Assembly: GCF_001467895.1 (NCBI RefSeq) | Contig: NZ_LNYO01000011.1 | Coordinates: 1-38,866, forward strand | Reading direction: 5' to 3' | Length of the DNA: 38,866 nt | Source: Legionella nautarum | GTDB taxonomy: Bacteria > Pseudomonadota > Gammaproteobacteria > Legionellales > Legionellaceae | Shown: one piece after another, positions 5,937 through 34,113 of the stretch | How positions within the stretch are numbered: position 1 is the first letter of the stretch | How the letters are laid out: each line of letters starts with the position of its first letter | The notes under the pieces: generated by a model | The model's input: only the letters and a program-made list of their open reading frames with translations | Told to the model about the DNA's origin: nothing | The model's database searches: none | Program-made: the position numbers and the translations under genes

Positions 5937-8900
5937 ATGTATAATAATAAGAAAACGACTATTGTCGAGGTGCTAGGGCAACTAGCTTCTGATAAGCCTG
6001 AACAACTTCTATACACTTTTTTAACTAATCAGCGTGATATACAACTCACATATAGAGAATTCGATACAAAGGCCAAACAGATAGCTGCACTGATTAGCAA
6101 TTATACCGCTGCTGGTGAGCCTGCGATTCTCTTGTATCCTGCGGGGCTTGACTTTATAACTGCTTTATTTGGCTGTTTTTATGCTGGTATCATCGCTGTA
6201 CCCATTTACACTCATAACTTTCAGCTTCAAAAACTCTTGCCTCGTCTCGAATCCATAATGCTGGATACCAATGCAAAAATCATTTTAACTACCGATGAAA
6301 TTGTGCGCGATAAACATCGTTTTATTGAAATGGCACAGTGGCTAAAAGATACAAAATTCATAGCAACTGACTTGCAAGATTATAGTTTGAATTCCTTGCC
6401 AATAACGAGCGAACTATCGCCAGAATCTATCGCATTCCTGCAATATTCTTCTGGGTCAACAGGTATCCCTAAAGGCGTGATGGTAACGCATCAAAACCTT
6501 ATAGCCAATTTGCGGGTTATTAGGGATGCTTTTGGCCTTGAACCCAATCAAAATGTAGTATCCTGGCTTCCTCACTATCATGACATGGGTCTCATTGGAA
6601 ACATCTTGGGAGCGCTGTTTAGCCAAACCCCCCTTTATTTATTTTCGCCAGCGGATTTTATTCGCAAACCCTTGCGATGGTTGGAATTAATTAGCCGTAC
6701 ACAAGCAACAGTCAGCGGAGGACCCAATTTTGCTTATGAATTATGTAGTCAATCTTTTCGCCCTGAACTTTGCAAAGGTTTAGATTTAAGCGCTTGGGAA
6801 GTTGCTTACAATGGTGCTGAAATGGTTCGTGAAAGTACACTCAGCCGTTTTGAGGCTATTTTCGCACCCTATGGGTTTCAAGGAAGGTCTTTCCATCCTT
6901 GCTATGGCTTGGCAGAGTCCACATTGATGGTTTCAAGTTCTGGAAAATCTCACTGCACGCGAGAACTTATTCTGGATAGAAAGAGTTTATTAAAGGGCCA
7001 GCTCAAAAAAGAATCGGCAGTATCTCCTTCAACGGTTATTTCCCTAAGTTCAGGGCAAATTCAAGCTACCCAACAGGTAGAAATTGTCGATCCAAAGACA
7101 AGAACTCGCTGTTTGCCTGATCAAATTGGAGAAATTTGGGTAAGCGGCCCTTCAGTCTGTAAAGGTTATTGGAACCGGCCCGAAGAAACCAACTATTATT
7201 TCAAGGCAAGCTTGTCTGAAGATTCAGGTCAGCAATTTCTGCGCACGGGTGATATGGGGTTTTTAGATCAAGGATGGTTATACATAACCGGAAGAATAAA
7301 AGATCTAATTATCATAAGGGGTCAAAATCATTCACCGGAAGACATCGAAAATACGGTTATTAACAGTCATCCCTCAGTATCACAAAGTCGAGTGGTAGCC
7401 TTTAGTCATGATTTTGATGGAGAAGAAGGATTGGTGGTCCTCGTTACTCAACCCAAGCATTTTAGTGAACAAAAAATCGCGATAGAACAGGCTATTCGTA
7501 AGGAAATTTCAACAAAGCATGATTTAGTGGTTAAGGAATTAATCTTTATTAAAAGGGCAAGCATTCCTTTGACTTCTAGTGGCAAGGTGCGTCGAGGTGA
7601 ATCGAAGAATCGTTATATTGAAGACAGGCTTAACCGTTTAGAGTCAGCTGCTGAGGTGTTGATTACTGAAAAAGGGCAAACAAATAGTGAATCAAACCTT
7701 GCCAGCACAAAACCCAGTCCAGAACAATTAATTAAACTCAATACGGATGCCCGCTTTGCAATTATCGTAAACTACTTACAAAAAGTCTTGGCGCGTGAGT
7801 TGGAAGTTAGTTTGGAGGCAATCAACCTTATTGCCCCCTTAAACCTGATTGCAGTTGATAGTCTTTCCAAAGTAAGAATCCAACATGAAATTCAGGAACT
7901 CACTGGTGTGCAAATTGGTCCGGAACGACTTTTAAGTGAGGCAACTTTAGTTGAGTTAGCCAGAGAAATTGCAGTAGCAATGAAAGATAAGCAATCTAAT
8001 GGCCAACCTTTATTAGAATTAGAACCAAAAGAATTTCCCCTGTCTAAGGGGCAACAATCTTTATACTTTATACAAAGACTTAGTCCAAATAATTTTGCCT
8101 ATAACATTTCACGTGCGGTTAGGGTAGTTAGTCCATTGGATCTCTCCGCATTGGAAAACGCTTTTAAAAATTTACTTAATAGACATGTTGCCTTGCGTAC
8201 ACGTATTTTCGAGCAGAATGGATCTTGTTTTCAAGCTGTTGCGGAGCCTTTCACGGCTGATTTTAAGCTTGTTGATGCCAGAAATTGGTCTGATTCCGAC
8301 TTATCAACTTGTATATCTAGTTTTTCTAGGCAGACTTTTGATTTAAACTCAGGATCGATGGCACGCCTATGCGTGCTACAACGAGAGCAGGATTATCTCC
8401 TTCTTTTTTCTGTGCATCACATTGTAGCTGACCTGGTTTCTCTCACCGTGGTGGTTGCAGAATTAGCTGAATACTATCATGCTGAAATTACAGGTGAAAA
8501 AGCCAAACTGCCAGCTCTCCTGGTTTCACCCCAAGAGTATATTCATTATGAAGAAGAATTCCTCCGGTCAGATAAGGCGCAGAAAATGCGCCAGTACTGG
8601 CTTGACGAGTTAAGTGATTCAGCCCTGTCGCTGGATTTACCTGCCGATCACCAACGTCCACCTGTAAAAAGTTACGAAGGGAAAACTTATCATTTTAGTT
8701 TGCCAGTAGAGTTAAGTAAAAAAATAGAAGAACTTGCGGTTAGGGAAGGAGTTACTATCTATGTAGTAATATTGTCGGCTTACTTTGTGTTACTGCATCG
8801 TTATACTGAAAAATCCACAATCACAGTGGGAACGCCAATGGCAAACCGTTCTGATGCGAGATTTGCAAATATGGTGTATTATTTAGTCAATCCTGTGGCA

Positions 8901-11900
8901 ATCAAAGGAGACTTTTCACACAGTTTGACTTTTGAAGATTTAATTAGTCAAATCAAGGACAAAACACTGGCGGCTATTCTTAATCAGCAATACCCCTTAG
9001 CTAAACTTATAGATGAGCTCCAAATCAAGCGTGACGCCAGTTCCACACCTTTATTCCAGGCTATGTTCAGTTATTTAAATCCCATGCCTGGGACTGATTT
9101 ATCAGCCTTTGCTTTAGGCCAATCGGGTTCTTGTCTAAATTTTCATGGATTGATACTTGAACCTTATTCTATACCCACCTATGGTGCTCAGTTTGATCTT
9201 AATGTTGCAATTTCGCACAACAATAATCAACTTGCTTCAACCTGGGAATATAGTACAGATTTATTTAATCAATGCACTATTCATAGAATGGCGCAGCATT
9301 TTCAAATTATCTTACAGGAAATGGTTAATGATTTTAGCCAACCTCTTAATGCGTTCATACTGCCCAGCTTTGAAGAAAGAGAGCAGATGGAGCTCTGGAA
9401 CGCTACGCAAACCAACTATGATTTAGAACTACCGCTACATCAGTTGTTTGAGTTGCAAGTTGAGAAAACCCCCGATGCTATCGCAATTCTGGATGAAAGG
9501 GATTCACTTAGCTATCGTGAATTTAACACCCGAGTCAATCAAGTAGCACACTACCTAATTAATCTGGGAGTAAGACCAGGCAGCATTGTTGCAATATACA
9601 TGGAACGCTCGCTGGAAATGGTGGTCGCTTTATACGCTGTTCTTAAAGCAGGGGGTGCGTATTTGCCCCTTGATTCCAGTTATCCGAAAAACCATCTCAA
9701 TTGGGTTCTAAACGATGCGGCTCCCACACTTGTTCTAACCGGTTCAGCTACGCCTTCCCTGGAAGTTGCATGTCCAGTTTTAAGTTTGGCTTCTGGTGGC
9801 GAAGACTTTAAAAGCCTACCTAAGGAAAATCCCTCCCTGGATATCAAGCCTTATGATAAGGCTTATATTATTTATACCTCAGGTTCTACGGGAAAACCAA
9901 AAGGGGTAATGATCCCTCATCAAGGTATTCGTAATCGTATACTATGGATGCAGGATGAATATCAATTAGATTCAAGTGATCGTGTGTTACAAAAAACTCC
10001 TTATACCTTTGATGTTTCGGTTTGGGAGTTTTTTTGGCCGCTTGCAACAGGAGCATCTTTATACATGAGTAATCCGGGCGGACACAAAGACCCCTATTAT
10101 TTAGCTGCTACGATACAACAAAAACAAATTACCACAGTGCATTTCGTACCCTCGATGCTTAAACCTTTTCTGGATAATGACAAGGTAAGTCAGTGCAAGA
10201 GTCTGAGACGTATTTTCTGTAGTGGTGAAGCTCTAAATCCAGAATTGGCAAGATTATGTATTTCAAGGCTCGATGCTAGTCTCTATAATTTATACGGTCC
10301 GACAGAGGCTTCGGTTGATGTCTCCCATTGGACTTGTCCACGAGATCAACCGATTAATCGTGTACTCATTGGGAAGCCCATTGCCAATACCCAGCTGTAT
10401 ATTCTTGATAATCATTGTTTACCTGTACCGATCGGAGTTCCTGGTGAATTATATATAGGTGGGGTTGGACTGGCCTTAGGCTATTTAAATCGATCTGATC
10501 TAACTACCGAATGTTTTATTCAAAATCCTTTTTCGCAGGATGCTGAGGCAAGGCTATATAAAACGGGTGATCTTTGTCGTTTTGAAATCAGCGGTGACAT
10601 TGAGTATTTAGGGCGAATTGATAATCAGGTCAAAATTCGTGGATTTCGCATTGAACTGGAAGAGATAGAGTCAGCTGTTTGCAGCCATCCACTGGTCAAT
10701 GAAGCTGTCGCATTAGCGGTTCATGATGCCTCAGGTTCAGCACGTCTTGCTTTGTACTTTGTAGTGAAGGGTTCTGCTAATCCGCCGCTATCAGAGTTAA
10801 GGAATTATCTAAGTGATCGCTTACCTGAACATATGATTCCAGCATTCTTTAAACAACTTGATGAACTACCCTTGTTGCCCAATGGAAAGGTAGACCGAAA
10901 AGCACTACGAGATTTGGGTATTTCTTTACCCGCAGTTAAGAGCCGAAATTATATTGCCCCTGTTACCCCCATGGAAATCCTTCTGTGTAAAATTTATGAA
11001 GAAATCTTACAGGTTGATCGCATTAGTATTAGCGATAATTTTTTTGATCTGGGAGGTGATTCGCTGTTAGTTTTGCGTGCAGTTGCAAAATTGCGTGAAT
11101 TGGAAGTAGAGGTCACTATACAGCAGTTATATTCCAATGCTACAGTCGCTGAAGTTGCTGCCTTGATTGAAAAAAATGATAAAGCTGATGATAAACGCTC
11201 AACAGCAGAGCAATTTTCTCTAATAAATCCAATAGATTTGGCAAAGCTTCCAGCTTCGCTTGAAGATGCCTATCCCTTAAGCAAAATGCAGGAAGGGCTG
11301 GTTTTCCATAGTGAATTTAGTCCTGATTACGAAATCTATGTTATGGGTTTGCACCTAAGGCTTCCTTTGAGTCTCGAGTCTGTCCATGAGGCCTTAGCTA
11401 TGCTGGTAAAACGGCATCCTTTATTACGCACCTCCTTTGATCTCATCCATTACAGTGAACCGCTGCAACTTGTTCATTTTGACTCTACCATTCCAACTAC
11501 TATTTTTGATATTCAATCTCTTTCTTTAGAAGATCAGAATTTAGAAATAGAACGTTTTATGCGTGAAGAAAAATGGCGTAAATTTGATTGGACAAAGGCT
11601 CCTTTTTTACGCTTGGCTCTTCATAAACGCAGTGCGGACCAAAGCCAATTCACCTTTAGCCATCCTTTATTTGATGGTTGGTCTATGGGGTTATTAATTA
11701 CTGAATTTTTTACGATCTATGGTGCCTTATTAAAAGATAAAAAGCCGCCTTTAAAGCCTGCTCCGCAAGTAAAATATCGTGATTTTCTTAGCTTAGAACG
11801 GCAAACCATGAGATCAGAAGCTTCTTTGCATTACTGGCAAAGAAAACTTGCAGGGATTTCGCGCTCAGAATTGCCGCGCTGGCCTGCGCACCGTAAAGAA

Positions 11901-14483
11901 GGGCCTGGAAGACATATACGCGTAGTTGTAAAAGTACCCAGTGCAACTCTTAAAGGGTTACAGAAGCTCGCAACAGTGGCCGAGGTGCCCTTCAAAACAG
12001 TTTTACTTGCGGCTCATATGCGAGTTGTTGGGTTTTTAACCGGGTCCACGGAGGTTACTACAGGTTTATTAACCAACGGCCGTCCTGAGATGTTAGATGC
12101 CGACTCTGTTATTGGCATGTTTTTAAATACAACGCCATTTCATATCAATCTGGATTCCAAAAATTGGATAGAACTTGCACGAAATACCTTTCAAGCAGAA
12201 TCTGAGCTGTTGCCACACAGACGTTTTCCCTTAGCAGAACTAGTGAGAATAGTTGGTGATGGAAAACAACTTTTTGAGACGGCTTTCAATTATATTCATT
12301 TTCATATTTATAAAGCGCTGGAGAAGGTTCCTGATTTATCAGTTCTTAGTTGGAAAAGTCCTTCTGATCAAACTTATTTTCCACTTACTGCCTATTTCCA
12401 TTTAGATATTTCTCAGGAAAGCTCAGAACTTTTGTTCTTTTTGGATGTGGATACAGGGGTATTAGCCCAGCAACAAATTGATTCCTTGCCTCATTATTAT
12501 TTGAATACCCTAAAGGCAATGGCCTCTGATCATAATGCTGAATACAAAGCTATTCAATTGTTACCTTGCGAAGAACAGAAGTTAATCATTGAGGATTTGA
12601 ACAAAACAACTGATTTAACAGCGAAAAGCACTTTATTGGTTCACCAGGCTTTTTCTTTCCAGGCCAGACTTCAAGACGAAAAAATTGCAGTGCTATGTCA
12701 TAAAGGACAATTATCCTATAAAGAATTAGAACAGCGCTCTAATTGCTTAGCCCATTATTTGCATGGGCTCGGGGTTGGTTCGAATCGCCTGGTTGCTGTC
12801 TGTTTACAGCGATCCACCAATCTAATTGTGGCCTTATTGGCTGTCTTAAAAGCAGGGGGAGCCTATGTTCCCCTTGATCCTTTATACCCCAAAGAACGTT
12901 TGGCCTACATGCTTGATGATGCTCAAACAACAGTTATCCTCACAGAAACCTTTTCTTGTGACAACCTGCCAGAGGGAGCTTTTCGCAAGATTTTTCTAGA
13001 TACTGAGTGGCCAGCGATTAGCCGTTTCCCAGATTTGCCAGCAGATTTTGTACAGGATAAGGAAGATTTAGCCTATGTAATCTATACCTCGGGTTCTACT
13101 GGTTTACCCAAAGGAGTAGAAATTCCTCATCGTGCCCTCTCCAACTTCTTAAGTTCGATAAATTCTTTGCTAGCTTGGCAACCTTCAGAAAAACTGCTAG
13201 CGCTAACTACTATTTCCTTTGATATTGCCGGTCTGGAAATCTTTTTGCCCTTAATCACTGGTGCTCAGGTTTATCTTGCTTCAAAAGAAATAAGTGTTGA
13301 TGGGGAAGGATTGGCTCAGTTAATAACTAAAGAAAAAATTACCAGCATTCAAGCAACTCCAGCAACCTGGCGAATGTTGATAGATACAGGTTGGACGGGG
13401 CATGCGGGCCTGCGTGCACTTTGTGGAGGAGAACGTATGCCTCAGGAACTTGCTCGTGATTTATTGGACAGAGGCTGTGATCTTTGGAATTTATATGGTC
13501 CTACAGAAACTACGATTTGGTCTACTTTATGGCATGTTGAATCAATGGAAGATTTAATTCCAATAGGTAAACCCCTGGGTAACACCAACATTTATGTTTT
13601 AGATGAGTTTCAACGTCCTGTTCCCCTGGGAGTTCCAGGTGAACTCTACATTAGTGGACTCGGTGTTGCCCGCGGGTATCGAAACTTACCAGAATTAACC
13701 GCAGAACGATTTAGCACTGATCCTTTTAGTGGACAAAACTACAGAATGTACCGTACCGGGGATCTGGTACGCTTTCGACCGGATGGTGTTTTAGAGTATT
13801 TAAGTCGAGTGGATCAGCAGGTTAAGGTTCGCGGGTTTCGAATTGAGCTTGGAGAAATAGAAACCCATTTAAATAGTCTGGAAGGCATTGATAAGGCGAT
13901 TACCAGAATTATGGATGATGGTTTTGGTGAAAATCATATCGTAGCTTACTGTTTACAAAATGGCAAAATTGCCTATACAACAAGTCAATTACGCCAGTTG
14001 TTGCTGGAAAAATTACCCAGTTATATGGTTCCCTCTAATTTTGTATTTTTAGAGCAGTTTCCTTTAACGCTTAATGGAAAAATTGATTTCAAAGCTTTAC
14101 CCAAGCCTGAGATCTCTAGGCAACCATTACAAGACGCTTACACTGCTCCCAGATCTGAGCTGGAACAAAAGATAGCAGAAATTTACGCCGAATTATTGCG
14201 TGTAGAACGAGTTGGCATTGATGATAATTTTTTTGACATGGGTGGGCATTCCCTTCTATTGGTAAGGATCCACGGCCAATTGCAAGCTCTTTTTGAACGC
14301 AAAATACCTATCGTTAAATTATTTGAATTACCAACAGTGAGAAAGGTGGCAACCTTATTTGCGAGTCAAGATGAACAATTGGTGGTTGCCGAAGCAGGGG
14401 AGCGTGCTAACAAACGTAAAGACTGGTTGGTAAAACAGCAAAAACGACGCTATTCAGGCATACCTAAGCTCGAAAAAACCTGA
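5937..14483 (+). CDS. Lipo-initiating NRPS: FAAL-ACP-C-A(Ser)-PCP-C-A(Gly)-PCP
   Basis: A 2848-residue megasynthase. Residues 1-560 are a fatty acyl-AMP ligase (QYSSGSTGIPKG near 168) that loads a fatty acid onto the ACP (VDSL, S642). C1 is about 698-1130; its active site is HHIVADL (H827, H828, D832), with Leu for the usual Gly. A1 (about 1165-1655) gives the pocket code DVWHFSLVDK, the canonical serine code. PCP1 carries S1709. C2 (about 1775-2210) has SHPLFDGW, keeping catalytic H1909 and D1913 but with Ser for the first His. A2 (about 2234-2720) reads DILQLGLIWK, a glycine code. PCP2 carries S2772. There is no epimerase and no terminal release domain, so the acyl-Ser-Gly thioester should pass to the next protein, 60 bp downstream. 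The codes were aligned by eye to GrsA. It is the first gene of the operon. Confidence 0.93.
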   Translation: MYNNKKTTIVEVLGQLASDKPEQLLYTFLTNQRDIQLTYREFDTKAKQIAALISNYTAAGEPAILLYPAGLDFITALFGCFYAGIIAVPIYTHNFQLQKLLPRLESIMLDTNAKIILTTDEIVRDKHRFIEMAQWLKDTKFIATDLQDYSLNSLPITSELSPESIAFLQYSSGSTGIPKGVMVTHQNLIANLRVIRDAFGLEPNQNVVSWLPHYHDMGLIGNILGALFSQTPLYLFSPADFIRKPLRWLELISRTQATVSGGPNFAYELCSQSFRPELCKGLDLSAWEVAYNGAEMVRESTLSRFEAIFAPYGFQGRSFHPCYGLAESTLMVSSSGKSHCTRELILDRKSLLKGQLKKESAVSPSTVISLSSGQIQATQQVEIVDPKTRTRCLPDQIGEIWVSGPSVCKGYWNRPEETNYYFKASLSEDSGQQFLRTGDMGFLDQGWLYITGRIKDLIIIRGQNHSPEDIENTVINSHPSVSQSRVVAFSHDFDGEEGLVVLVTQPKHFSEQKIAIEQAIRKEISTKHDLVVKELIFIKRASIPLTSSGKVRRGESKNRYIEDRLNRLESAAEVLITEKGQTNSESNLASTKPSPEQLIKLNTDARFAIIVNYLQKVLARELEVSLEAINLIAPLNLIAVDSLSKVRIQHEIQELTGVQIGPERLLSEATLVELAREIAVAMKDKQSNGQPLLELEPKEFPLSKGQQSLYFIQRLSPNNFAYNISRAVRVVSPLDLSALENAFKNLLNRHVALRTRIFEQNGSCFQAVAEPFTADFKLVDARNWSDSDLSTCISSFSRQTFDLNSGSMARLCVLQREQDYLLLFSVHHIVADLVSLTVVVAELAEYYHAEITGEKAKLPALLVSPQEYIHYEEEFLRSDKAQKMRQYWLDELSDSALSLDLPADHQRPPVKSYEGKTYHFSLPVELSKKIEELAVREGVTIYVVILSAYFVLLHRYTEKSTITVGTPMANRSDARFANMVYYLVNPVAIKGDFSHSLTFEDLISQIKDKTLAAILNQQYPLAKLIDELQIKRDASSTPLFQAMFSYLNPMPGTDLSAFALGQSGSCLNFHGLILEPYSIPTYGAQFDLNVAISHNNNQLASTWEYSTDLFNQCTIHRMAQHFQIILQEMVNDFSQPLNAFILPSFEEREQMELWNATQTNYDLELPLHQLFELQVEKTPDAIAILDERDSLSYREFNTRVNQVAHYLINLGVRPGSIVAIYMERSLEMVVALYAVLKAGGAYLPLDSSYPKNHLNWVLNDAAPTLVLTGSATPSLEVACPVLSLASGGEDFKSLPKENPSLDIKPYDKAYIIYTSGSTGKPKGVMIPHQGIRNRILWMQDEYQLDSSDRVLQKTPYTFDVSVWEFFWPLATGASLYMSNPGGHKDPYYLAATIQQKQITTVHFVPSMLKPFLDNDKVSQCKSLRRIFCSGEALNPELARLCISRLDASLYNLYGPTEASVDVSHWTCPRDQPINRVLIGKPIANTQLYILDNHCLPVPIGVPGELYIGGVGLALGYLNRSDLTTECFIQNPFSQDAEARLYKTGDLCRFEISGDIEYLGRIDNQVKIRGFRIELEEIESAVCSHPLVNEAVALAVHDASGSARLALYFVVKGSANPPLSELRNYLSDRLPEHMIPAFFKQLDELPLLPNGKVDRKALRDLGISLPAVKSRNYIAPVTPMEILLCKIYEEILQVDRISISDNFFDLGGDSLLVLRAVAKLRELEVEVTIQQLYSNATVAEVAALIEKNDKADDKRSTAEQFSLINPIDLAKLPASLEDAYPLSKMQEGLVFHSEFSPDYEIYVMGLHLRLPLSLESVHEALAMLVKRHPLLRTSFDLIHYSEPLQLVHFDSTIPTTIFDIQSLSLEDQNLEIERFMREEKWRKFDWTKAPFLRLALHKRSADQSQFTFSHPLFDGWSMGLLITEFFTIYGALLKDKKPPLKPAPQVKYRDFLSLERQTMRSEASLHYWQRKLAGISRSELPRWPAHRKEGPGRHIRVVVKVPSATLKGLQKLATVAEVPFKTVLLAAHMRVVGFLTGSTEVTTGLLTNGRPEMLDADSVIGMFLNTTPFHINLDSKNWIELARNTFQAESELLPHRRFPLAELVRIVGDGKQLFETAFNYIHFHIYKALEKVPDLSVLSWKSPSDQTYFPLTAYFHLDISQESSELLFFLDVDTGVLAQQQIDSLPHYYLNTLKAMASDHNAEYKAIQLLPCEEQKLIIEDLNKTTDLTAKSTLLVHQAFSFQARLQDEKIAVLCHKGQLSYKELEQRSNCLAHYLHGLGVGSNRLVAVCLQRSTNLIVALLAVLKAGGAYVPLDPLYPKERLAYMLDDAQTTVILTETFSCDNLPEGAFRKIFLDTEWPAISRFPDLPADFVQDKEDLAYVIYTSGSTGLPKGVEIPHRALSNFLSSINSLLAWQPSEKLLALTTISFDIAGLEIFLPLITGAQVYLASKEISVDGEGLAQLITKEKITSIQATPATWRMLIDTGWTGHAGLRALCGGERMPQELARDLLDRGCDLWNLYGPTETTIWSTLWHVESMEDLIPIGKPLGNTNIYVLDEFQRPVPLGVPGELYISGLGVARGYRNLPELTAERFSTDPFSGQNYRMYRTGDLVRFRPDGVLEYLSRVDQQVKVRGFRIELGEIETHLNSLEGIDKAITRIMDDGFGENHIVAYCLQNGKIAYTTSQLRQLLLEKLPSYMVPSNFVFLEQFPLTLNGKIDFKALPKPEISRQPLQDAYTAPRSELEQKIAEIYAELLRVERVGIDDNFFDMGGHSLLLVRIHGQLQALFERKIPIVKLFELPTVRKVATLFASQDEQLVVAEAGERANKRKDWLVKQQKRRYSGIPKLEKT

Positions 14484-14543
14484 TTTTCTGCGGGGTAAGA
14501 GCAAAACTGAAATTAATGTAATAAAAGGACTAGGTGTGAACTA

Positions 14544-18413: not shown

Positions 18414-18424
18414 AGAGGAAAAAA

Positions 18425-19027: not shown

Positions 19028-19029
19028 GA

Positions 19030-23094: not shown

Positions 23095-23105
23095 GTGGAG
23101 AGAAA

Positions 23106-24599
23106 ATGATTAAAAAAATTGATATTGCGGTTATCGGTGGCGGAGTATCCGGTCTATATAGTGCTTATCGTCTTAAAAAATTATTGCCAGAAAAAACCAT
23201 AGCGGTCTTTGAGTTACTGCCCTTTTTAGGAGGGCGAATTCAGACAGGATCCTTTACTGAGGGTTTATTTCAACCAGCTTATGGTGCGTTGAGAATAGAG
23301 CCTGAGTATCAAAAACAAATGCATCGTTTTATTCAGGACTTACAGATTCCGGTAAAACAGATTGAACAAGGTGAGGCCAGCACACCCTCGGTTCCTAATC
23401 TTGATGCCCTTACTGCTGAAGAAAGAAACCTTATTTTAGAAAATCCCGAAAGGGGAGCAGATATTTTACTGCTTGAATTGGGAATACAAAAAATACTGGG
23501 CGAGCAATGGAATCTGAAAACTGATGATCTGACTAATCCAGGTCGCGATGCCGAGCTTGAAATATTGCGACAAACAGCCTGCTATAAAAAGAAACCGCTA
23601 TATCAGCAAGGGGCCTGGAATGTATTTGCTGATGTTCTTTCGTATGAAGCAATCGAATTTTTCCGTGAAAAGGGTGCTTATTACAATATGAAAAATGATA
23701 ATCAATCGTCCATCGATTGGATCATTTTTCTTTTAACCTTCCGACTCTTGAAGCAACCGTCATACATACCCGTAGGAGGTATGATTCAACTAATTAATCA
23801 TATTGAAAAAGAACTTTGCAAATTAGAGGTGGGAATCCATCTCAATCGCCAATTGCAAGCAATAAACGAACGGGATAAGAAAACCCTTTGTTTAAAATTG
23901 GAAGACAGGCAAACAGGAACAATTGAAGAATTATTATGTGAGCATGTGATTTTGGCACTCCCTCAGTATCCTTTGAAACAATTAACTTCTTACCTGCCTT
24001 CCACAATCAATATTCTGCTTGACAGTGTTTCGCCAATTCCCATTATCTGGGCGACTGCAACTATGAAAAATCCACCTTGGGAGCTTGATGCACCACCAAC
24101 GGGGGGGGAAGGAGCGCCGATCAGAACTGCTCATCTGGAATGGAAACAAAACAAGGGAGAGGCTTACGGTTTGGCCATGCTTTATTGCGACGGTCCTTGG
24201 CATCAATATTGGCGTCCTTACGTGGAAGATAAGGTCGATGATTTTGAAGGTTATCAGTATCTTCCCCAAATCAACCAAAATGCATCATTGAAATATGAAA
24301 TTGAAAAAGCGATAAAGCAACATTTTAATCTGCCTTCGATGCCTGAGGTGGAAGAGTGGGGAATACGCGATTGGGGTCGCCCCCCTTTTGGGGCCGCGGT
24401 GCATTTTTGGAAACCGAATGCCCAATCCACTCTAATCATGCAAACCCTAAAGGCATTTGCTTTACAGGAAAATGGTCAATATAAAAACGTACATATTTGT
24501 GGAGAAGCCTACTCGCAATACCAAGGCTTTTTTGAAGGGGCAATTCAATCTGCAGATTTTGCAATTTCAGCGATTGTGCAATCCTTTCTTGCTAAATAA
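23106..24599 (+). CDS. FAD-dependent amine oxidase
   Basis: A 497-residue flavoprotein. The N-terminal dinucleotide motif is IAVIGGGVSGLYSAYRL (glycines 11-16), followed by the GGRIQTG element near residue 43. The C-terminal flavin-contacting segment HICGEAYSQYQGFFEGAIQSA lies near 465-485. This is the amine oxidase/L-amino-acid oxidase fold, which oxidises C-N bonds to imines. Members act on free amino acids (VioA, StaO) or on amide-containing polyketides (LkcE of lankacidin, which forms an iminium used for ring closure). Its place between the A-PCP didomain and the second PKS line suggests oxidation of a carrier-bound aminoacyl group or of a late intermediate carrying a free amine. The ATG has GTGGAGAG upstream. 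There is no signal peptide. Confidence 0.88.
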   Translation: MIKKIDIAVIGGGVSGLYSAYRLKKLLPEKTIAVFELLPFLGGRIQTGSFTEGLFQPAYGALRIEPEYQKQMHRFIQDLQIPVKQIEQGEASTPSVPNLDALTAEERNLILENPERGADILLLELGIQKILGEQWNLKTDDLTNPGRDAELEILRQTACYKKKPLYQQGAWNVFADVLSYEAIEFFREKGAYYNMKNDNQSSIDWIIFLLTFRLLKQPSYIPVGGMIQLINHIEKELCKLEVGIHLNRQLQAINERDKKTLCLKLEDRQTGTIEELLCEHVILALPQYPLKQLTSYLPSTINILLDSVSPIPIIWATATMKNPPWELDAPPTGGEGAPIRTAHLEWKQNKGEAYGLAMLYCDGPWHQYWRPYVEDKVDDFEGYQYLPQINQNASLKYEIEKAIKQHFNLPSMPEVEEWGIRDWGRPPFGAAVHFWKPNAQSTLIMQTLKAFALQENGQYKNVHICGEAYSQYQGFFEGAIQSADFAISAIVQSFLAK

Positions 24600-24636
24600 G
24601 TTAAGTCTAGTTTGCAATTTTTAAGAGGTAACTAAA

Positions 24637-27600: not shown

Positions 27601-30600
27601 GTAACTATCCATCAGCAAAAGCCAAATCAATACAAATTTAGCTACTTTTGTCTAGCTGAAATAGACCAATTAGTCTGCGAAATGACTCTCCTTTTAAAAT
27701 CGTATGAAGAGCCAAATTGTGTAGAAATAAATCAAGGCACCAAAATACAAGACACATCTGAGTTTTATAGCAATTATGCTGTCTGCGGGGTCAATTATGG
27801 GCCCTTATTTAAAAAGCAAAAATCCTATTATAATCTTGACAGTCAAAACATTATCAGCGAGTTAGAAGCTGCCGAGGGTTATTTCACCAGTCATGCAGCC
27901 TTTATAGATAATTGCTTTCAAACAATGGCCTTAGGCTTAAATCAGCTTGGGAGTGCTTTTGCGCCTACGGCTGTTAATCAGTTTAAATTTTATAAAGAAG
28001 AAAAATGGGGGGTAGGTTTAGGCTGTCATGCCCAAATAATAGAGCAAAAAGAAGGGCATTTGGAAGCCAATCTAAAAGTTTATAATGCCCAAAATAAAGT
28101 AGTCATGGAAATCAATGGAATTGTCTGCAAATCTATTCAATTAGATGCCTTGTCTGCGAATGTCATCCACAAAGTAGCACTGGAAAAAATAGCTGTTTCG
28201 GCACCTGATAACTCTTTAAAAGACTTTGCATTTCTTGCGAATTTTAAAACAGAGTGGGTTAAGCCTGAATCAATATTAGCTTGGTCTGATTTGCAGGCTA
28301 AGACAACAATCGATGTCCGGCATTTAATAATTGGTTTCGATGGGCTTGCCTGGGACAAAAATGAACTCTTTTCCCTATTTCAGTGTTTGTTCAATTTTTT
28401 AAGGCTCCAGGCTGAAAAGATTTCAGGAAATTTAAAGGTCATTTCATTCCTTTCTTTAAACGATAAGGCCAAAGATTATAAAAAACTCTTAGCCCCGCTT
28501 TTAAAGGCGATGACACTGGCCTTTCCAACGGAATTTCCTAATCTAAGCTTCCGCCATTTCAGCTATACTAAATTGACAAAAGATAATATCGCCTTTCTTT
28601 TTGCTGAAGATAAGGAATTGCCAACTGATCATGAATTTCTAATTCCCTTTTGGGAAGTTTATGGAAATGAACTCTATCGTTATAAAACAATTCCACAAAA
28701 GCCCAATCAGGCTGAGCCGCTTCCCAAAGAAGGGTATTACTTAATTACAGGAGGCTTAGGTGGTATAGGAAAAACCTTAGTTAGGCATATGGTGTCCAAT
28801 TTAGGTTGTAGAAATTTAATTCTAACCTATCGTAAACTTGAACCTGAGGCCGAACAATTTATTACCGAACTCAATGATCAATACGACGCAAATATTCGTT
28901 GCCATCATGTTGATTTAAGATCTGAAAGCCAGCTTGTTAAATTATTTGCAACTCTACCGCGCCCTCTCTATGGAATCTTTCACTTAGCGGGGATTATTCA
29001 GGATCAAAGCCTTGCTAAAACTAGTCCACATTCCATTGAAAATGTTTTGGCAGCCAAATTGTTCTCAGCTTGGACCTTGCATGAATTGTCGCAGGAAATC
29101 ACCGAACTTAAGGCTTTTGTTTTATTTTCTTCACTGGCCACATTGATTTCTTCACCAGGGCAATTTAATTACGCACTGGCAAATCTGGGATTACAAGAAT
29201 TAGCCGCTCATCGTAAGAATAGTCATTTACCAGTTAGCCTAATTGATTGGGGACCATGGGCAAATATCGGTATGATGGCCAATTCAGACTCTTTATCAGC
29301 ATCGAGTATAGTTTTAAGCAAATTTGTACCCTTATCACCGACAATTTGTCATGAGGCACTTTTTTCATGCTTAAATCAGACCAATGATTCTCATTTTGCC
29401 GTCTTTAAAATGAATAAAAGAGAGCCAATTGTTCGAACAAGTGTAGAATCGGAAACAAAAATTTCGCTCAATCCCCATTCATCAAAAAAAGAAGCAGCCC
29501 AATTTATCAAAGCGCTGTTGCTAAGACTTATTGCTCAGGAAACAAACCATGCCAGTGCATCCATAGATGAGCACCTAATTCTTAGCGAACTTGGTTTGGA
29601 TTCTATCAATACAATAAGAATTCGTGCGGAGTTGCAAACAGAATTAAATCTTGCTATTCCCTTATCTATTTTACTGGAAGAAACCACCCTCGAACGCCTT
29701 GTAGACCAGGTGCTGGTATTGTGGTTGGCGAATCAGAATAATCAGAACCAGCACTCAGAATCGAATGAGGAAGCCTCGGTAAACAGGGGTGATGCTAATT
29801 TCTTTTCGCTTTCTTATAATCAGTTTTCAATTTGGTATGAACAGCACGCCATAGAAAACAACCAGGCTTATCATTGTTCAATTGGCTGGAAAATACGCGG
29901 CGGCGATCTTAATCTTAAGCAGGTTTATGCAAATTGGGAAGTATTGATTAGCAGGCATGAAATGCTCCGAGCTTTATTTTCAAGCAGAGAGGGAAATTTA
30001 GGTTATGAGTTACTTTCTGTTTCACAAGCTTTGGAACAGCAAATGGTTGTCGTTGAAACTATCGAGGCGGATCGTGACCCACAGCAATACTTACAAAATT
30101 ATTTGTTGCGTAAAATCGATTTTAATCGTGAATTACCAACAAAAGTCCTTATCCTTTCTCACCAAAATGATGTGTATCTAATGCTCTCTTCCCATCATAT
30201 TGTTATGGATGCAGCAGCAATGTTTTATCTGGGGAAAAAATTATTAACCTCCTTATGTGAAGCCGATTACGTCTTGGATAAGGACTTTTCGTCCCAACCC
30301 TACCATGAATTTACAAAACAACAATTTCTGCAATCTGCAGAATTTGATTTAAAAACACTGTCTTTTTTGCGGAAGGAAGTATTGAATGAAGAAGGGGAGT
30401 TGCGCGTATTTGAATTACCGAAAAAATCAAATACTGGGATCTTAAATTTGGCAAAAGGAGCAACAAAGACCATCTTATTTTCAGAAATGGAAATGCAAAT
30501 CATTCAGTCATTGCCGGCAAGCATCCGAGTACATTTATGCCTAAGCGCATGGGCATTATTACTAGCGAAATACAGTGGTGAAGAAAACCTGTTAATTGGT

Positions 30601-33600
30601 GTCGCTTTTAATGGCAGGACTCAAAAGAAATGGACGGAGGTTGTAGGCCATTTTGTAAATGTCTTACCCTTATGTATTAAGGTGAATCAACATCAGGCTT
30701 CTAATCAGTTCATAAACGAGATAAAAAGTCGTTTGATCGAATTACTAGAATTTCAGGATTTCCCCCTTGTAAAATTAATGAAGGATCCAGAAGTTAAACA
30801 AGCACTCCAGGGTCGACCCTTATTACAAACTTATTTTAATTATTTTGATGCCTCAGATCTTGATATTAGCGTTAATAATCAGTTAGTAACTATTGATGCT
30901 TTAGTTTATCCCCAACAAGAGGCCCAATTTGAAATGAGTCTATGGGTGACGCGAACAAGCAGAGGTTTTGACTTTGAGGTTAAATATCAGAGAGAACTAT
31001 TTTCAGAGACTATGCTTGAAAAACTGGTAGGATATTATAAAACGGTTCTAATCGCTCTAAGTCAGGCGCTGTTGCAAAGTAATACTCAGTTGAAATTAGC
31101 TGAGATCCAATTTTTGTCAGAGACAGAGTTGGCAAAACGTCTTCCGCCAGAGTCAACAAATCGACCTAGTCAGTTGGTATACAACTATTTTGCAGAACAG
31201 GCAGCGAGTTTGCCACAGTCTGTAGCCATTGAAATGCGCGAGCAAAATATAAGTTATCAAAGTTTGCAAGGCTGGGTCGATGAGCTTGCATTAGCACTGA
31301 CTGAATTTCCGCAATCCAAGGATGAAACCGTGGCTATTATAGCGCCTGAACGTGCTAATATTGAGTTCATCGTGACGGTTCTAGCCTTATGGAAACAGGG
31401 GTTTGCCTTTGTTCCCTTAAATAGCCATCATCCCTTTGAACGCATTAAATATGTTCTGGATACAGTGGGGTGTAGGAAACTCATTTTGGTTGATGTCTTA
31501 AGTCCAAACCTTGAGAATTATATCTGCACTAACAATAAATTATTGCTTGAAGTTAGAATCGAGTTTCCTCAGTTGCAAATTCAAGTATTAAACGAATCAA
31601 TCCCAGAAGAAAATGATAGATTTGAAAACAGAAGCCAAGCGAATCCCAGTGATCTTGCCTATATTCTGTTTACCTCTGGATCTACTGGGTTACCAAAAGG
31701 TGTGCTAATTGAACAAGAGGGTCTTATTGACCGTTTATTGTGGATGAAAAATTATTTTAATTTTTCTGCAGCAGATAAATTTTTACAATCAACGCTTCTT
31801 ACCTTTGATGTTTCTCTACCTGAATACTGTTTACCTTTGATATGTGGCGCCACTATAGTGCTTTTTCACCCAGAAGAGAGCCAGAATGCGCATGCTGCTC
31901 TTTGTACTTATCATCAGGTGACGATGATGAGTACCGTGCCATCTTTGTTCAGTATTTTGCTCTCGGATTTGGCTGGTTGCCCTACGTTAAAACATCTAAT
32001 TATGATTGGAGAGGTTCTTCCGCGCGCGATAGTCAACAAGTGGCTAGCCTCTAACCAAACTTGTACCTTATATAATTTATATGGCCCAACAGAGGTTACA
32101 GTTTATGCGAGTGCTCATGCTTGTCGTGAGCCAATTAACTCGGCTTTGGTTCCAATAGGTGAAGCAGCTGACAATGTTATTCCCTTGGTTTTAGACCAAT
32201 ATGGTAATCCAGTTTTAGATGAGGTGATCGGTGAGCTCTATTTAGCTGGCAGTGGGGTTGCACGAGGTTATATTGGTGGACAACTGAAGTCCGATCCCTT
32301 TATCAATAATCCATGGCAATCATTACATTATACGCGGATGTATAAAACCGGTGATTTTGTTCGTTGGCTTGAAGGAGGAAGGCTTGAGTATATTGGCCGT
32401 AAAGATAATCGCATTAAATTAAACGGTCTTTTAGTTGAATTGGGTGAGATTGAAGAACGGGTGCTAAAAGCCTTTCCAGATCTGGAAAATGCTTGTGCAA
32501 TTATTACTGAGTTTAAAATCAAAGAAACTTTAATAAAACACATTGTATTATGCATCATGCCAGAATGTACAGATAGCTCTATTATCATGGAGCATCTTAA
32601 ACAACACTTACCCCAATATATGCTTCCTTGGAAAATTATTTCCTATGCCGAATTTCCACGGAATTCTAGTGCAAAGGTTGATAGAAAATTATTAACAAAC
32701 TTAGTAAAGGAACTTTACGAAGAAGAGTCAGTCCAAGCGAAGCTAAGACCTAAATCGAGTCATCAGCCTGTTACTTTCATGGAAAAGGAAATTTGCAAAA
32801 TATGGGAAACTTTATTACAAAAATCTAACCTGGGTATCGATGAAAATTTCTTCGAATTAGGCGGAGATTCCTTGTTACTGACACAAATGATCCTGCTCGT
32901 GGAAAAACAGCTAGGTATTAAAACAAATTTCGCTAAATTTCTCGCCAACCCATCAATTAATTCCCTACTTCATGGCCTAAGCATGGAGTCTCCTATTTGG
33001 GAAAATGAATTTAAACTTCTAAAAGCGATTTCACCTTATCAAGAAGTAAAGAAAACAAAGGCTGTTTTATTAACAGGTGGAACGGGACATTTGGGTATTC
33101 ATCTTTTACGTTCTTTACTTAATCAAACAGATAAGCAAATTTATTTAATTATTAGAGCCGAATCCAAGACAAAGGCGATTGAAAGATTAACAGAGCGTTA
33201 TTTTAGCGTTTTTGGGGATTCTCTTGCCCTAAATCGCCTTTGCATTTATAGCGGTGATTTAGCGTTATTAAATTTTGGTTTGGAAGAAGCAGATTTTCAA
33301 AAACTTTGCCAGGAAATTTCCTTAATAATTCATGCTGCTGCTGAGGTGAATCATGTAGTTGATTATGTCCGTTTAAAAAAATCCAATGTCCTAGTTTCTA
33401 AGAATATGCTTGATTTGGCAAGATCTGCCCATTGCACACATTTTTTTCATATTTCTACTCAATTCTCTGAGCTTAGCATCTTGCCTGAGTCTTATATGAA
33501 TGAAACGTCTATAAACGAATTTAGTTCAGGATATGAACAATCCAAGTTTATTGCTGAATCATTAATGTCTGCTGCAAAAAATCTTAAGTATCCAGTGACA

Positions 33601-34113
33601 ACCCTACGTTTGCCGCTAATTATTGACGACAGTGATCCACTTTTATTGCGACAAAATCACTTTGTAGCCTTTGTAATGAAATGTTTGCGGCTCGGAGCAT
33701 ACCCTGATATTGGCTTATCCTTTGCGCTGTTGGCAACGGCAGATCTGGCTGATTTTGTCGCTGAACTGTCCAACAAAAGTTATTTAGAACCAGAAGTTTA
33801 TAATTGTCATACAAGGAGAATTTCACTCCAGGAACTCTTTGATTTTTTCATAACAGAAACAGAATATAAGGTGAATAAATTAGAGCCTTCCTTATGGAAA
33901 GCCCGAGTTTTAGAATCAACCTATGAGACGGATCCTTTTTATAAACTTCTACCACTTTATACCTCATCTTTACTCATTTCAGAGAATGTTAATGAACAAT
34001 TAATCGAGCATAAAGGGTTTTTAAAAGCGATAGAAACCACTAAGTTAGCCGTGACTGATAATGCGCATATTAAAAAGATTGGGTCGATGTTGGCGAATTA
34101 CTCCAGACTATAA
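24637..34113 (+). CDS. Hybrid PKS-NRPS: KS-AT-DH-KR-ACP-C-A-PCP-thioester reductase
   Basis: A 3158-residue protein starting at TTG, supported by AAGAGGT 8 nt upstream. KS: C169, H304, H341, all intact. AT (about 512-830): GHSLG (S608) and HAFH (715-718), the malonyl-specific signature. DH (about 905-1175): first motif HVIHEMCILP (H929) with Glu for the usual Gly; D1091-x3-Q1095 present. KR (about 1365-1545): GGLGGIG from G1372, S1499, Y1512; the IQD at the LDD position keeps the B-type Asp. ACP: S1656. C (about 1725-2150): HHIVMDA (H1854, D1858), Ala for Gly. A (about 2190-2690): pocket DVPSIILVYK by eye, no substrate I recognise. PCP: S2745. The reductase starts at GGTGHLG (G2814) with Y2966/K2970. 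Predicted product: an enoyl unit amidated to one amino acid, released as aldehyde or alcohol. There is no ER and no loading domain. It is the last gene of the operon. Confidence 0.93.
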   Translation: MKQHSPISIIGMACEFAGQADSLANFYKVILEGVDATSDISEGRWNVDLDSLPQSIRHGGFLKRNPWSFDAQFFAISPKEAAHMDPQHRILLEQTYHALEDTNLDLDTIKGSNCGVFIGLGTQDYSRIMHNSGQFSGLHSKGSLGSMAAGRIAYHFDLIGPNFVVDTACSSSLVALDQAVKALQDHRCDLAIVGGVTLILTTDYNTDLASANLLAKDGRCKPFSKGADGFARGEGVGVIILQRRQEALRDKRRIYANILGSAINSDGKTNGITAPSKESQKRVIQDALKDAQISAQEVNFIETHGTGTDLGDKIEFAALIEIYQGREEPLYIGSVKGNIAHCEAAAGIAGVIKTSLCIYHDLIPPHTAANFLNPDLRVASLKAQFPAQVLPKRNIVGTVSSFGMSGANAEVVLADEPTKNAAASADCPQVYPYLLLSAKSAESLHKLGSEYRLLLEHCEEEAFNKCLSQANLRNNCSGYRKLVYGQDKTALLKQLDKIDLTALKKRMVKGKTKFAFMFTGQGAVFKEMTRVLYDRIPLYRNILNDYAAKMDDVIHLPHKIISYIFNDEFSLSLDDPQTAQLSLFLIEFSLARLLNLLGITPDFVVGHSLGEYAAACSAGILSFEQAVQMVNLRSQAIKEEPGLQDGLMLQIYATNELVQKLLAELRLKNPLLALWISVNNAPEIQVVSGNKESVLQLTDLLKQKGIPYLKLNTSHAFHTPCLELAATNFKDRALASAMSFTLKNSITSFISTAEPHRDDNQNQAFASIDYWAAQIVKPVRFVDAIESCYELGVRSFIEIGPDSILTNLARQCLKNKESSAELEFIAMNSKNKNNLDSLFSVLNYFYSTHRLDGSKLGLLDDKQRVFSSFFLPVYPFARVELLPDYLKNSRVPAVIEKNNSKKIRLEPTHLEFQINLDLSQIEHAYIAQHVIHEMCILPGSYYIATSIQLLETFKESYLANQPQTIIELDNLLIMHPVIISQSGQESLKVTIHQQKPNQYKFSYFCLAEIDQLVCEMTLLLKSYEEPNCVEINQGTKIQDTSEFYSNYAVCGVNYGPLFKKQKSYYNLDSQNIISELEAAEGYFTSHAAFIDNCFQTMALGLNQLGSAFAPTAVNQFKFYKEEKWGVGLGCHAQIIEQKEGHLEANLKVYNAQNKVVMEINGIVCKSIQLDALSANVIHKVALEKIAVSAPDNSLKDFAFLANFKTEWVKPESILAWSDLQAKTTIDVRHLIIGFDGLAWDKNELFSLFQCLFNFLRLQAEKISGNLKVISFLSLNDKAKDYKKLLAPLLKAMTLAFPTEFPNLSFRHFSYTKLTKDNIAFLFAEDKELPTDHEFLIPFWEVYGNELYRYKTIPQKPNQAEPLPKEGYYLITGGLGGIGKTLVRHMVSNLGCRNLILTYRKLEPEAEQFITELNDQYDANIRCHHVDLRSESQLVKLFATLPRPLYGIFHLAGIIQDQSLAKTSPHSIENVLAAKLFSAWTLHELSQEITELKAFVLFSSLATLISSPGQFNYALANLGLQELAAHRKNSHLPVSLIDWGPWANIGMMANSDSLSASSIVLSKFVPLSPTICHEALFSCLNQTNDSHFAVFKMNKREPIVRTSVESETKISLNPHSSKKEAAQFIKALLLRLIAQETNHASASIDEHLILSELGLDSINTIRIRAELQTELNLAIPLSILLEETTLERLVDQVLVLWLANQNNQNQHSESNEEASVNRGDANFFSLSYNQFSIWYEQHAIENNQAYHCSIGWKIRGGDLNLKQVYANWEVLISRHEMLRALFSSREGNLGYELLSVSQALEQQMVVVETIEADRDPQQYLQNYLLRKIDFNRELPTKVLILSHQNDVYLMLSSHHIVMDAAAMFYLGKKLLTSLCEADYVLDKDFSSQPYHEFTKQQFLQSAEFDLKTLSFLRKEVLNEEGELRVFELPKKSNTGILNLAKGATKTILFSEMEMQIIQSLPASIRVHLCLSAWALLLAKYSGEENLLIGVAFNGRTQKKWTEVVGHFVNVLPLCIKVNQHQASNQFINEIKSRLIELLEFQDFPLVKLMKDPEVKQALQGRPLLQTYFNYFDASDLDISVNNQLVTIDALVYPQQEAQFEMSLWVTRTSRGFDFEVKYQRELFSETMLEKLVGYYKTVLIALSQALLQSNTQLKLAEIQFLSETELAKRLPPESTNRPSQLVYNYFAEQAASLPQSVAIEMREQNISYQSLQGWVDELALALTEFPQSKDETVAIIAPERANIEFIVTVLALWKQGFAFVPLNSHHPFERIKYVLDTVGCRKLILVDVLSPNLENYICTNNKLLLEVRIEFPQLQIQVLNESIPEENDRFENRSQANPSDLAYILFTSGSTGLPKGVLIEQEGLIDRLLWMKNYFNFSAADKFLQSTLLTFDVSLPEYCLPLICGATIVLFHPEESQNAHAALCTYHQVTMMSTVPSLFSILLSDLAGCPTLKHLIMIGEVLPRAIVNKWLASNQTCTLYNLYGPTEVTVYASAHACREPINSALVPIGEAADNVIPLVLDQYGNPVLDEVIGELYLAGSGVARGYIGGQLKSDPFINNPWQSLHYTRMYKTGDFVRWLEGGRLEYIGRKDNRIKLNGLLVELGEIEERVLKAFPDLENACAIITEFKIKETLIKHIVLCIMPECTDSSIIMEHLKQHLPQYMLPWKIISYAEFPRNSSAKVDRKLLTNLVKELYEEESVQAKLRPKSSHQPVTFMEKEICKIWETLLQKSNLGIDENFFELGGDSLLLTQMILLVEKQLGIKTNFAKFLANPSINSLLHGLSMESPIWENEFKLLKAISPYQEVKKTKAVLLTGGTGHLGIHLLRSLLNQTDKQIYLIIRAESKTKAIERLTERYFSVFGDSLALNRLCIYSGDLALLNFGLEEADFQKLCQEISLIIHAAAEVNHVVDYVRLKKSNVLVSKNMLDLARSAHCTHFFHISTQFSELSILPESYMNETSINEFSSGYEQSKFIAESLMSAAKNLKYPVTTLRLPLIIDDSDPLLLRQNHFVAFVMKCLRLGAYPDIGLSFALLATADLADFVAELSNKSYLEPEVYNCHTRRISLQELFDFFITETEYKVNKLEPSLWKARVLESTYETDPFYKLLPLYTSSLLISENVNEQLIEHKGFLKAIETTKLAVTDNAHIKKIGSMLANYSRL

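What the first reader, a model, noticed from the sequence alone, without database searches (positions are those of the whole stretch)
5937..34113. A lipo-initiated NRPS/PKS operon with two separate reductive terminations
Seen: eight co-directional, tightly spaced or overlapping genes containing two lines, each ending in a thioester reductase with intact NADPH loop and YxxxK. Line 1 is FAAL-ACP-C-A-PCP-C-A-PCP then KS-AT(dead)-ACP-reductase. Line 2 is KS-AT-DH-KR-ACP-C-A-PCP-reductase. Known: such reductases release aldehydes or alcohols, which can condense with amines to imines, as in koranimine and nostocyclopeptide. Inference: the operon may make two reductively released pieces that are joined, or one reductase is bypassed so the chain passes from line 1 to line 2. 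I know of no described pathway with exactly this architecture.
Basis: partly seen in the sequence, partly recalled or inferred. Interest (0 to 1): 0.88.

Follow-up and report, generated by a model that had tools for sequence, protein, structure and literature searches.

The report
Twin reductive lipopeptide assembly-line cluster
A block of bacterial genes, kept in four related bacteria, encodes two assembly lines that each end in a reducing release step and probably makes an unknown small molecule from two reactive pieces; what it makes and does is not yet known.

Summary
Eight packed genes (5937-34113) encode two NRPS/PKS lines, each ending in a thioester reductase with intact cofactor loop and catalytic residues. 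The genus is Legionella. The cluster was found in 4 of 143 family genomes (two genera); both lines are present in all four, and both reductases keep their catalytic residues in 4 of 4, so a dead reductase is unlikely.

Added: (1) The cluster is larger: monooxygenase-esterase fusion, MFS pump, small secreted-type protein, perhaps a second FabF. (2) Line 1 is predicted to make fatty acyl-dehydroalanine-glycine: codes read Ser and Gly, and the second C domain carries the published dehydrating-C fingerprint in 4 of 4, as in corallorazine. Unlike corallorazine, a KS-(dead AT)-ACP precedes the reductase, predicting a beta-keto aldehyde. (3) Line 2 is probably primed by the stand-alone A-PCP. (4) Window and G014 keep both ATs (line 1's dead, line 2's intact); G005 and G051 lack both.

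Best model: two reductively released pieces, possibly joined by amine-carbonyl chemistry. Joining, product and role are inferred. New variant of a known kind; no described match found in the papers searched, MIBiG not searchable here.

The parts
1128..3794 (+). Flavin monooxygenase (Baeyer-Villiger type) fused to an alpha/beta-hydrolase esterase
   Evidence: FMO-like 49.4 bits and Abhydrolase_3 237.7 bits, both over cut-off; nearest NCBIfam models PtlE and LipP1, both below cut-off; in 2 of 22 genus genomes, both with the cluster, and beside it in G051; not in G014
3823..5100 (+). MFS exporter
   Evidence: tetracycline-pump-like models, all below cut-off; MFS relatives of 54-77% at the other three clusters
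5159..5545 (-). Small protein with an apparent signal peptide, upstream of NRPS1
   Evidence: relatives at the same place in G014 (64%) and G005 (46%); no family over cut-off
5937..14483 (+). NRPS1: FAAL-ACP-C1-A1(Ser)-PCP-C2(dehydrating)-A2(Gly)-PCP
   Evidence: codes; orthologs
11229..12491 (+). C2, dehydrating-type condensation domain; fingerprint KTVLLAAH at 11994-12017
   Evidence: McyA 6.8e-94, AmbE 9.2e-52; fingerprint 4 of 4
14544..18413 (+). PKSR: KS, dead AT, ACP, reductase R1
16128..16748 (+). Dead, shortened AT of PKSR
   Evidence: GDGIG for GHSxG; GEGVG in G014; absent in G005 and G051
17328..18395 (+). Thioester reductase R1
   Evidence: TIGR01746 334 bits, over cut-off; MxaA 1.8e-76
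18425..19027 (+). ATC-hydrolase-family protein, role unknown
   Evidence: PF14196 69.8 bits against 28.1
19030..20517 (+). M20 peptidase with N-terminal hydrophobic segment; possible deacylase
   Evidence: PF01546 8.5e-29; PRK08262-type models, below cut-off
20499..21287 (+). Stand-alone thioesterase
   Evidence: PF00975 4.7e-15
21268..23094 (+). Stand-alone A-PCP, probable loader of line 2; code DPHTCGVIM
   Evidence: code the same in 4 of 4
23106..24599 (+). FAD amine oxidase of the L-amino-acid-oxidase kind
   Evidence: PF01593 8.3e-18; nearest solved 8zf8, 8zb2, 8jhe
24637..34113 (+). PKS-NRPS: KS-AT-DH-KR-ACP-C-A4-PCP-reductase R2
26182..27138 (+). Intact AT (GHSLGEY, HAFH) of the PKS-NRPS
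   Evidence: kept in G014, absent in G005 and G051
33064..33993 (+). Thioester reductase R2 (divergent)
   Evidence: PF07993 2.9e-46; TIGR01746 192.8 bits, below cut-off; MxaA 4.5e-25
34140..35378 (-). Second FabF-type ketosynthase, perhaps part of the cluster
   Evidence: TIGR03150 over cut-off

Best explanation
An intact, conserved Legionellaceae cluster with two cooperating assembly lines, both released by reduction. Line 1 (NRPS1 + PKSR): FAAL loads a fatty acid on the ACP; C1 acylates Ser on PCP1; C2 dehydrates it to dehydroalanine (Dha) and joins it to Gly; the PKSR ketosynthase adds one malonyl unit, which must be loaded in trans because the line's own AT is dead; R1 releases a fatty acyl-Dha-Gly beta-keto aldehyde (or the alcohol after a second hydride). 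Line 2: the stand-alone A-PCP primes the KS of the large protein; one malonyl extension with KR and DH gives a gamma-amino-alpha,beta-unsaturated unit; C-A-PCP adds a second residue; R2 releases an amino aldehyde with a free amine. The 1,3-dicarbonyl of piece 1 and the amine of piece 2 would condense to an enaminone or imine, giving one product. The M20 enzyme, the oxidase, the ATC-hydrolase-like protein and, in 3 of 4, the monooxygenase-esterase would tailor it; MFS or MATE pumps would export it. Shown by sequence: genes, domains, motifs, conservation, AT state. Inferred from domain rules: substrates, Dha, malonyl unit, reduction. Speculative: priming by the A-PCP, joining, tailoring, role.
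For: Domains and order. Cluster in 4 of 143 family genomes by the oxidase profile and the same four by line 2. PKSR over its length in 3 of 22 genus genomes and in G051. Adenylation codes: A3 and A4 identical in 4 of 4, A1 and A2 varying at one position each (read by eye). Dehydrating-C fingerprint in C2 of 4 of 4 and nowhere else in the NRPS/PKS proteins of the four clusters (motif from PMC11342130, section read). Reductase loops and catalytic residues 4 of 4. Low dN/dS window-G014: R1 0.050, R2 0.120, the two KSs 0.035 and 0.043 (dS about 2, so rough).
Against: No product, expression or enzyme data. A3 and A4 substrates not predicted. R2 is below the TIGR01746 cut-off. The oxidase keeps an Arg that in L-amino-acid oxidases holds a free carboxylate (recalled; alignment), so it may act on a free amino acid, and its place in the scheme is open. 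The DH motif HxxxGxxxxP has E or N for G in 3 of 4. C1 and the line-2 C have HHxxxD followed by L or A instead of G. G014 lacks the monooxygenase-esterase. The joining step rests on general chemistry alone.
Confidence: 0.55

Rival explanations
1. Two separate products: each line releases its own reduced molecule, and they are never joined.
For: Each line has its own reductase and its own loader; no dedicated joining enzyme was recognised.
Against: The lines co-occur in 4 of 4 genomes and share one operon with one accessory set in window, G014 and G005.
Confidence: 0.25
2. One chain: the intermediate passes from PKSR to the KS of the PKS-NRPS, and R1 is bypassed or only clears stalled chains.
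For: Gene order in the operon; KS-containing proteins at both places.
Against: R1 is intact and conserved in 4 of 4, sits at the end of PKSR, and a dedicated A-PCP lies before the PKS-NRPS (next to it in G051).
Confidence: 0.1
3. R1 acts as a cyclase: the gamma-amide nitrogen attacks the beta-keto thioester and a tetramate-like ring leaves, without reduction, as for some fungal R* domains (recalled).
For: The expected R1 substrate is a beta-keto thioester with a gamma-amide.
Against: Cofactor loop and Ser-Tyr-Lys intact in 4 of 4; nearest solved relative is the reductase MxaA.
Confidence: 0.08
4. The A-PCP, oxidase and thioesterase prepare a modified amino acid as a separate building block, and line 2 is primed by something else.
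For: The three genes are neighbours in window, G014 and G005; the oxidase looks like a free amino acid oxidase.
Against: No other loader for line 2 was found in the window; the oxidase is not beside the A-PCP in G051.
Confidence: 0.2

Closest known systems
Corallorazine (crz) cluster of Corallococcus coralloides (PMC11342130: abstract, introduction, cluster, C-domain and distribution sections and passages seen)
   Same: Acyl start, Ser module, dehydrating C domain, Gly module, reductive release: acyl-Dha-Gly core
   Different: Here FAAL and ACP are fused to the NRPS, there is no N-methyltransferase, a KS-(dead AT)-ACP lies between the Gly module and the reductase, and a second line with its own reductase is present; no P450/FMN-reductase pair seen
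Dehydrating C domains of McyA and AmbE (PDB 8jbr, 7r9x)
   Same: Closest solved relatives of C2
   Different: First His of HHxxxDG is Ser (window, G014) or Cys (G005, G051)
MxaA (myxalamid) terminal reductase (PDB 4u7w)
   Same: Closest solved relative of both R1 and R2
   Different: R2 only distantly (4.5e-25); myxalamid has one terminal reductase (recalled)
Koranimine and nostocyclopeptide (recalled; PMC7551626 seen in a listing only)
   Same: A terminal reductase gives an aldehyde that meets an amine
   Different: One line and one reductase, free N-terminus; line 1 here is N-acylated
Glidobactin/syringolin-type amino acid plus malonyl units (recalled)
   Same: Line 2 would make the same kind of gamma-amino-alpha,beta-unsaturated unit
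   Different: Release by a reductase; stand-alone A-PCP loader
Legionella NRPS/PKS clusters surveyed in PMC5126622 (passages seen)
   Same: Same genus; cluster C there is a monomodular NRPS with a terminal reductase
   Different: No FAAL-started two-line cluster in the passages seen; L. drozanskii is not mentioned; its supplements were not readable here

Membership tests
Corallorazine (crz) clusters | Ser module, dehydrating C, Gly module | tested here: met
   codes (read as Ser and Gly from memory), fingerprint
Corallorazine (crz) clusters | T-reductase directly after the Gly A domain; N-methyltransferase | tested here: not met
   the Gly PCP ends NRPS1; KS-AT-ACP precedes R1; no methyltransferase domain
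Corallorazine (crz) clusters | Acyl-CoA dehydrogenases crz4/5, P450 and FMN reductase crz7/8 | tested here: not met
   none among the window ORFs scanned; the ORFs at 258-836 and 37582-38391 were not scanned
Dehydrating (CmodAA) C domains | [K/R]SVLLAAH, Arg pair at C6, DG of HHxxxDG | tested here: met
   4 of 4 each (Arg pair of G051 read from its second contig piece); absent from C1 and line-2 C
Dehydrating (CmodAA) C domains | Dehydration of bound Ser | not testable with these tools
   sequence only
Thioester reductase (TIGR01746) | R1 over the curated cut-off, loop and catalytic residues | tested here: met
   334 against 213.35 bits; residues 4 of 4
Thioester reductase (TIGR01746) | R2 over the curated cut-off | tested here: not met
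   192.8 against 213.35 bits; yet PF07993 158.2 against 20.1 and residues 4 of 4
Trans-AT PKS | KS modules without a working AT of their own | tested here: inconclusive
   window and G014: line-1 AT dead, line-2 AT intact; G005 and G051 lack both; the PKSR KS groups with nine other Legionella KSs of which seven have an AT match, one a short one and one none
Koranimine/nostocyclopeptide-type cyclic imines | Free N-terminal amine in the chain that carries the aldehyde | tested here: not met
   for line 1: it starts with FAAL-ACP; line 2 could have one, not testable
Acyl-leader prodrug systems of colibactin/xenocoumacin type (features recalled) | D-Asn module with epimerase and an S12-type peptidase | tested here: not met
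   peptidase is M20; no condensation-like stretch left for an epimerase; A1 reads Ser

The most novel reading that the evidence does not exclude
A convergent biosynthesis in which two lines each release a reduced piece with complementary reactivity (a lipo-dehydroalanyl-glycyl beta-keto aldehyde and an amine-bearing vinylogous dipeptide aldehyde) that join into one electrophile-rich product, with the adjacent second FabF possibly a self-protective copy of its target, in a cluster caught in passage between cis and trans acyltransferase loading.
Probability: 0.3. Interest if true: 0.8.

Novelty: new variant of a known kind. Interest (0 to 1): 0.6.

Why it matters
All enzyme types are known. What I did not find together in print is two reductive releases in one conserved operon, a PKS unit placed inside a corallorazine-like lipo-Dha-Gly line, and orthologs of the same two modules with an intact, a dead or no AT. 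The four clusters form a natural series for asking how a modular PKS moves between cis and trans acyl loading, and they are a candidate for making one molecule from two released aldehydes. They also point to an undescribed metabolite of Legionellaceae.

Tried and rejected
Bypass or death of one reductase: not favoured, residues conserved in 4 of 4. Line 2 primed by line 1: not favoured, a dedicated A-PCP precedes it. Close kinship of the A-PCP with linear gramicidin synthase LgrA: rejected, its high score summed two domains. FabF as a firm cluster gene: weakened. The window and G014 copies are near the housekeeping FabF (window copy 79% to those of G000, G005 and G014), the G005 and G051 copies form another branch (59% to the window copy) (only 2 of 9 inner branches of the tree are well supported). 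G012, without a cluster match, keeps a FabF 91% like that of G014 among genes that flank the G014 cluster. So FabF may be self-protection, acyl supply, a leftover or a mere neighbour. Folding the ATC-hydrolase-like protein from one sequence gave mean pLDDT 48.6: not used, no fold search made. The KS tree cannot decide between repeated AT loss and loss plus regain. dN/dS windows without a finite dS were dropped (window-G014: dead AT, line-2 KS-AT linker, line-2 C, NRPS1 C2, ATC-hydrolase-like protein, A-PCP; more for window-G005). PDB codes 8zb2 and 8zf8 were found in no held paper. No relative of the oxidase in viral contigs. The search for the ATC-hydrolase name with NRPS clusters listed no paper that held that name (25 of 5,498 listed). 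The FAAL review PMC11837247 holds none of reductase, aldehyde or peptidase.

Full report
What is there. Pfam and NCBIfam give NRPS1 as FAAL-ACP-C-A-PCP-C-A-PCP, PKSR as KS-AT-ACP-reductase, then an ATC-hydrolase-family protein, an M20 peptidase with an N-terminal hydrophobic segment, a thioesterase, a stand-alone A-PCP, an FAD amine-oxidase-type enzyme and a PKS-NRPS of 3158 residues ending in a second reductase. The FAAL call rests on NCBIfam models below their cut-off plus the DIP2-like domain over its Pfam cut-off. The window is almost the whole of contig C11 (39309 bases) of a 3.65 Mb genome.

Which organism. A named-genome scan with the oxidase profile hit Legionella drozanskii LLAP-1 (68%) and a gammaproteobacterial MAG (63%). 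The first contig has the same length as contig C4 of G005, a same-genus genome, so the window is from Legionella; its species is not known. I therefore propose no bench work.

How widespread. The oxidase profile finds 4 of 143 family genomes at E<=1e-60: window, G014, G005, G051, and 1 of 369 genomes sampled from the class, the own one (at most four candidates per genome scored). PKSR matches over its length in 3 of 22 genus genomes (19 of 22 have some KS or reductase match) and in G051. The later 1919 residues of the PKS-NRPS give four near-full-length matches, in the same genomes; 19 of 143 pass E<=1e-100, the other 15 with partial matches at 31% identity or less (at most three candidates per genome scored). 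Gene order from NRPS1 to the PKS-NRPS is the same in window and G005; G014 has an SDR and an MFS gene inserted; G051 has the genes on two contigs, with a MATE exporter inserted and the oxidase beside NRPS1, divergently. Both lines are present in 4 of 4.

Cluster borders. The monooxygenase-esterase fusion is in 2 of 22 genus genomes, both with the cluster, and beside it in G051, but not in G014. An MFS gene accompanies all four. A small secreted-type protein lies upstream of NRPS1 in three. In G012, homologs of genes on both sides of the G014 cluster lie close together, with a FabF among them and no cluster gene; that FabF is 91% identical to the one at the end of the G014 cluster. Two FabF copies at E<=1e-150 occur in 4 of 22 genus genomes: G000, G005, G014 and G012. 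In the tree the window and G014 copies are near the housekeeping FabF and the G005 and G051 copies form another branch (few forks well supported). Self-protection, acyl supply and mere neighbourhood all remain possible.

Line 1 chemistry. The specificity residues, read by eye with anchors on GrsA numbering (recalled), are DVWHFSL(V/I)D and DILQLG(L/M/V)IW in the four orthologs; I read them as Ser and Gly from memory. C2 is nearest to the dehydrating-type C domains of McyA (6.8e-94) and AmbE (9.2e-52) among solved structures. The corallorazine paper (PMC11342130; parts seen) describes for these domains a fingerprint [K/R]SVLLAAH, an Arg pair and a strict DG, and reports that the first His may be missing, in two cases replaced by Cys. 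C2 has KTVLLAAH (window) or KSVLLAAH (three others), the Arg pair and DG in 4 of 4, and Ser (window, G014) or Cys (G005, G051) for the first His; the fingerprint occurs nowhere else in the NRPS/PKS proteins of the four clusters. An acyl-Dha-Gly core, as in corallorazine, is thus well supported as a prediction. In corallorazine the T-reductase follows the Gly module directly; here a KS with its Cys-His-His (seen), a dead AT and an ACP come between, so the released piece should carry one more acetate unit: a beta-keto aldehyde.

Line 2 chemistry. The A-PCP has an ACP-like carrier and the code DPHTCGVIM; A4 has DVPSIILVY; both are identical in 4 of 4 and I could not assign a substrate. The first Asp is kept in both, so alpha-amino acids are expected (recalled rule). 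KR has its glycine loop and YxxxN; DH has the His, the Pro and DxxxQ, but the Gly of HxxxGxxxxP is E or N in 3 of 4. The expected unit is gamma-amino-alpha,beta-unsaturated. That the A-PCP primes the KS is inferred from its place and from the lack of another loader.

Reductases. R1 passes TIGR01746 (334 bits) and is nearest to MxaA (1.8e-76); R2 does not pass (192.8 bits) and matches MxaA at 4.5e-25. Loop and Ser/Thr-Tyr-Lys are kept in 4 of 4 for both. dN/dS window-G014 is 0.050 for R1 and 0.120 for R2 with dS near 2, so only the direction is safe.

Acyltransferases. In window and G014 the line-1 AT lacks the catalytic Ser (GDGIG, GEGVG) and is shortened; in G005 and G051 it is gone, with the neighbouring linkers kept. 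The line-2 AT is intact in window and G014 and gone in G005 and G051. G000, G005 and G014 each have FabD and one further stand-alone AT; no FabD match was found in the G051 MAG, which is 94% complete. The PKSR KS tree runs G051, then G005, then window with G014 (support 96/91 and 100/99), inside a group with nine other Legionella KSs, seven with an AT match, one with a short one and one with none. Either the ATs were lost more than once, or lost and regained. Line 1 needs loading in trans in all four; who supplies it (the line-2 AT, FabD or the other AT) is open.

Other enzymes. The oxidase is of the L-amino-acid-oxidase kind; the Arg of its YGALR aligns with Arg in the three nearest solved proteins, which in such oxidases holds the carboxylate (recalled). 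The M20 protein resembles the PRK08262 group, below cut-off; removal of the fatty acyl group is a guess. One phosphopantetheinyl-transferase match was found in the own genome, in keeping with the single PPTase that PMC5126622 reports for the Legionella it analysed (passages seen).

How it most likely works. Line 1 gives a lipidated beta-keto aldehyde, line 2 an amino aldehyde; a 1,3-dicarbonyl and a primary amine readily form an enaminone (general chemistry). This single-product reading is my best guess; two separate products are the main rival.

Novelty. No paper with two thioester reductases in one pathway came up (three papers listed, none on the subject), nor a Legionella paper holding both 'nonribosomal peptide' and 'thioester reductase' (none); further searches. 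These searches match words, not meaning; most subscription papers, MIBiG and antiSMASH could not be searched, so an unseen match is possible.

Noticed in passing
G012 contig C28, about 67.5-76.4 kb (L071, L072): Genes homologous to both flanks of the G014 cluster lie together without the cluster; a FabF 91% like that of G014 is among them.
   Followed up: partly
L013 and L020 (G013 and G009 PKS loci): The AT after the KS gives only partial matches in these other Legionella PKSs; AT decay may be common in the genus.
   Followed up: no
G000:C22:21195-22022, G005:C20:330635-331465, G014:C1:1396439-1397248: A stand-alone acyltransferase besides FabD in each of the three genomes; a possible trans-acting AT.
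   Followed up: no
window 35636-37414 (-): Ankyrin-repeat protein with a very weak match to a Dot/Icm effector model (20.8 bits against a cut-off of 1000).
   Followed up: no
window 37582-38391 (-): Protein with a nucleotidyltransferase-like start (GSYA...SDIDLLV; motif recalled, no search made).
   Followed up: no
L034/L035 and L054/L055 (G051 contigs C32 and C21): The MAG cluster is split over two contigs inside NRPS1, and its oxidase lies divergently beside NRPS1 instead of before the PKS-NRPS.
   Followed up: partly
window 27385-28149: Dehydratase motif HxxxGxxxxP has Glu or Asn in place of Gly in 3 of 4 orthologs; G051 keeps Gly.
   Followed up: partly
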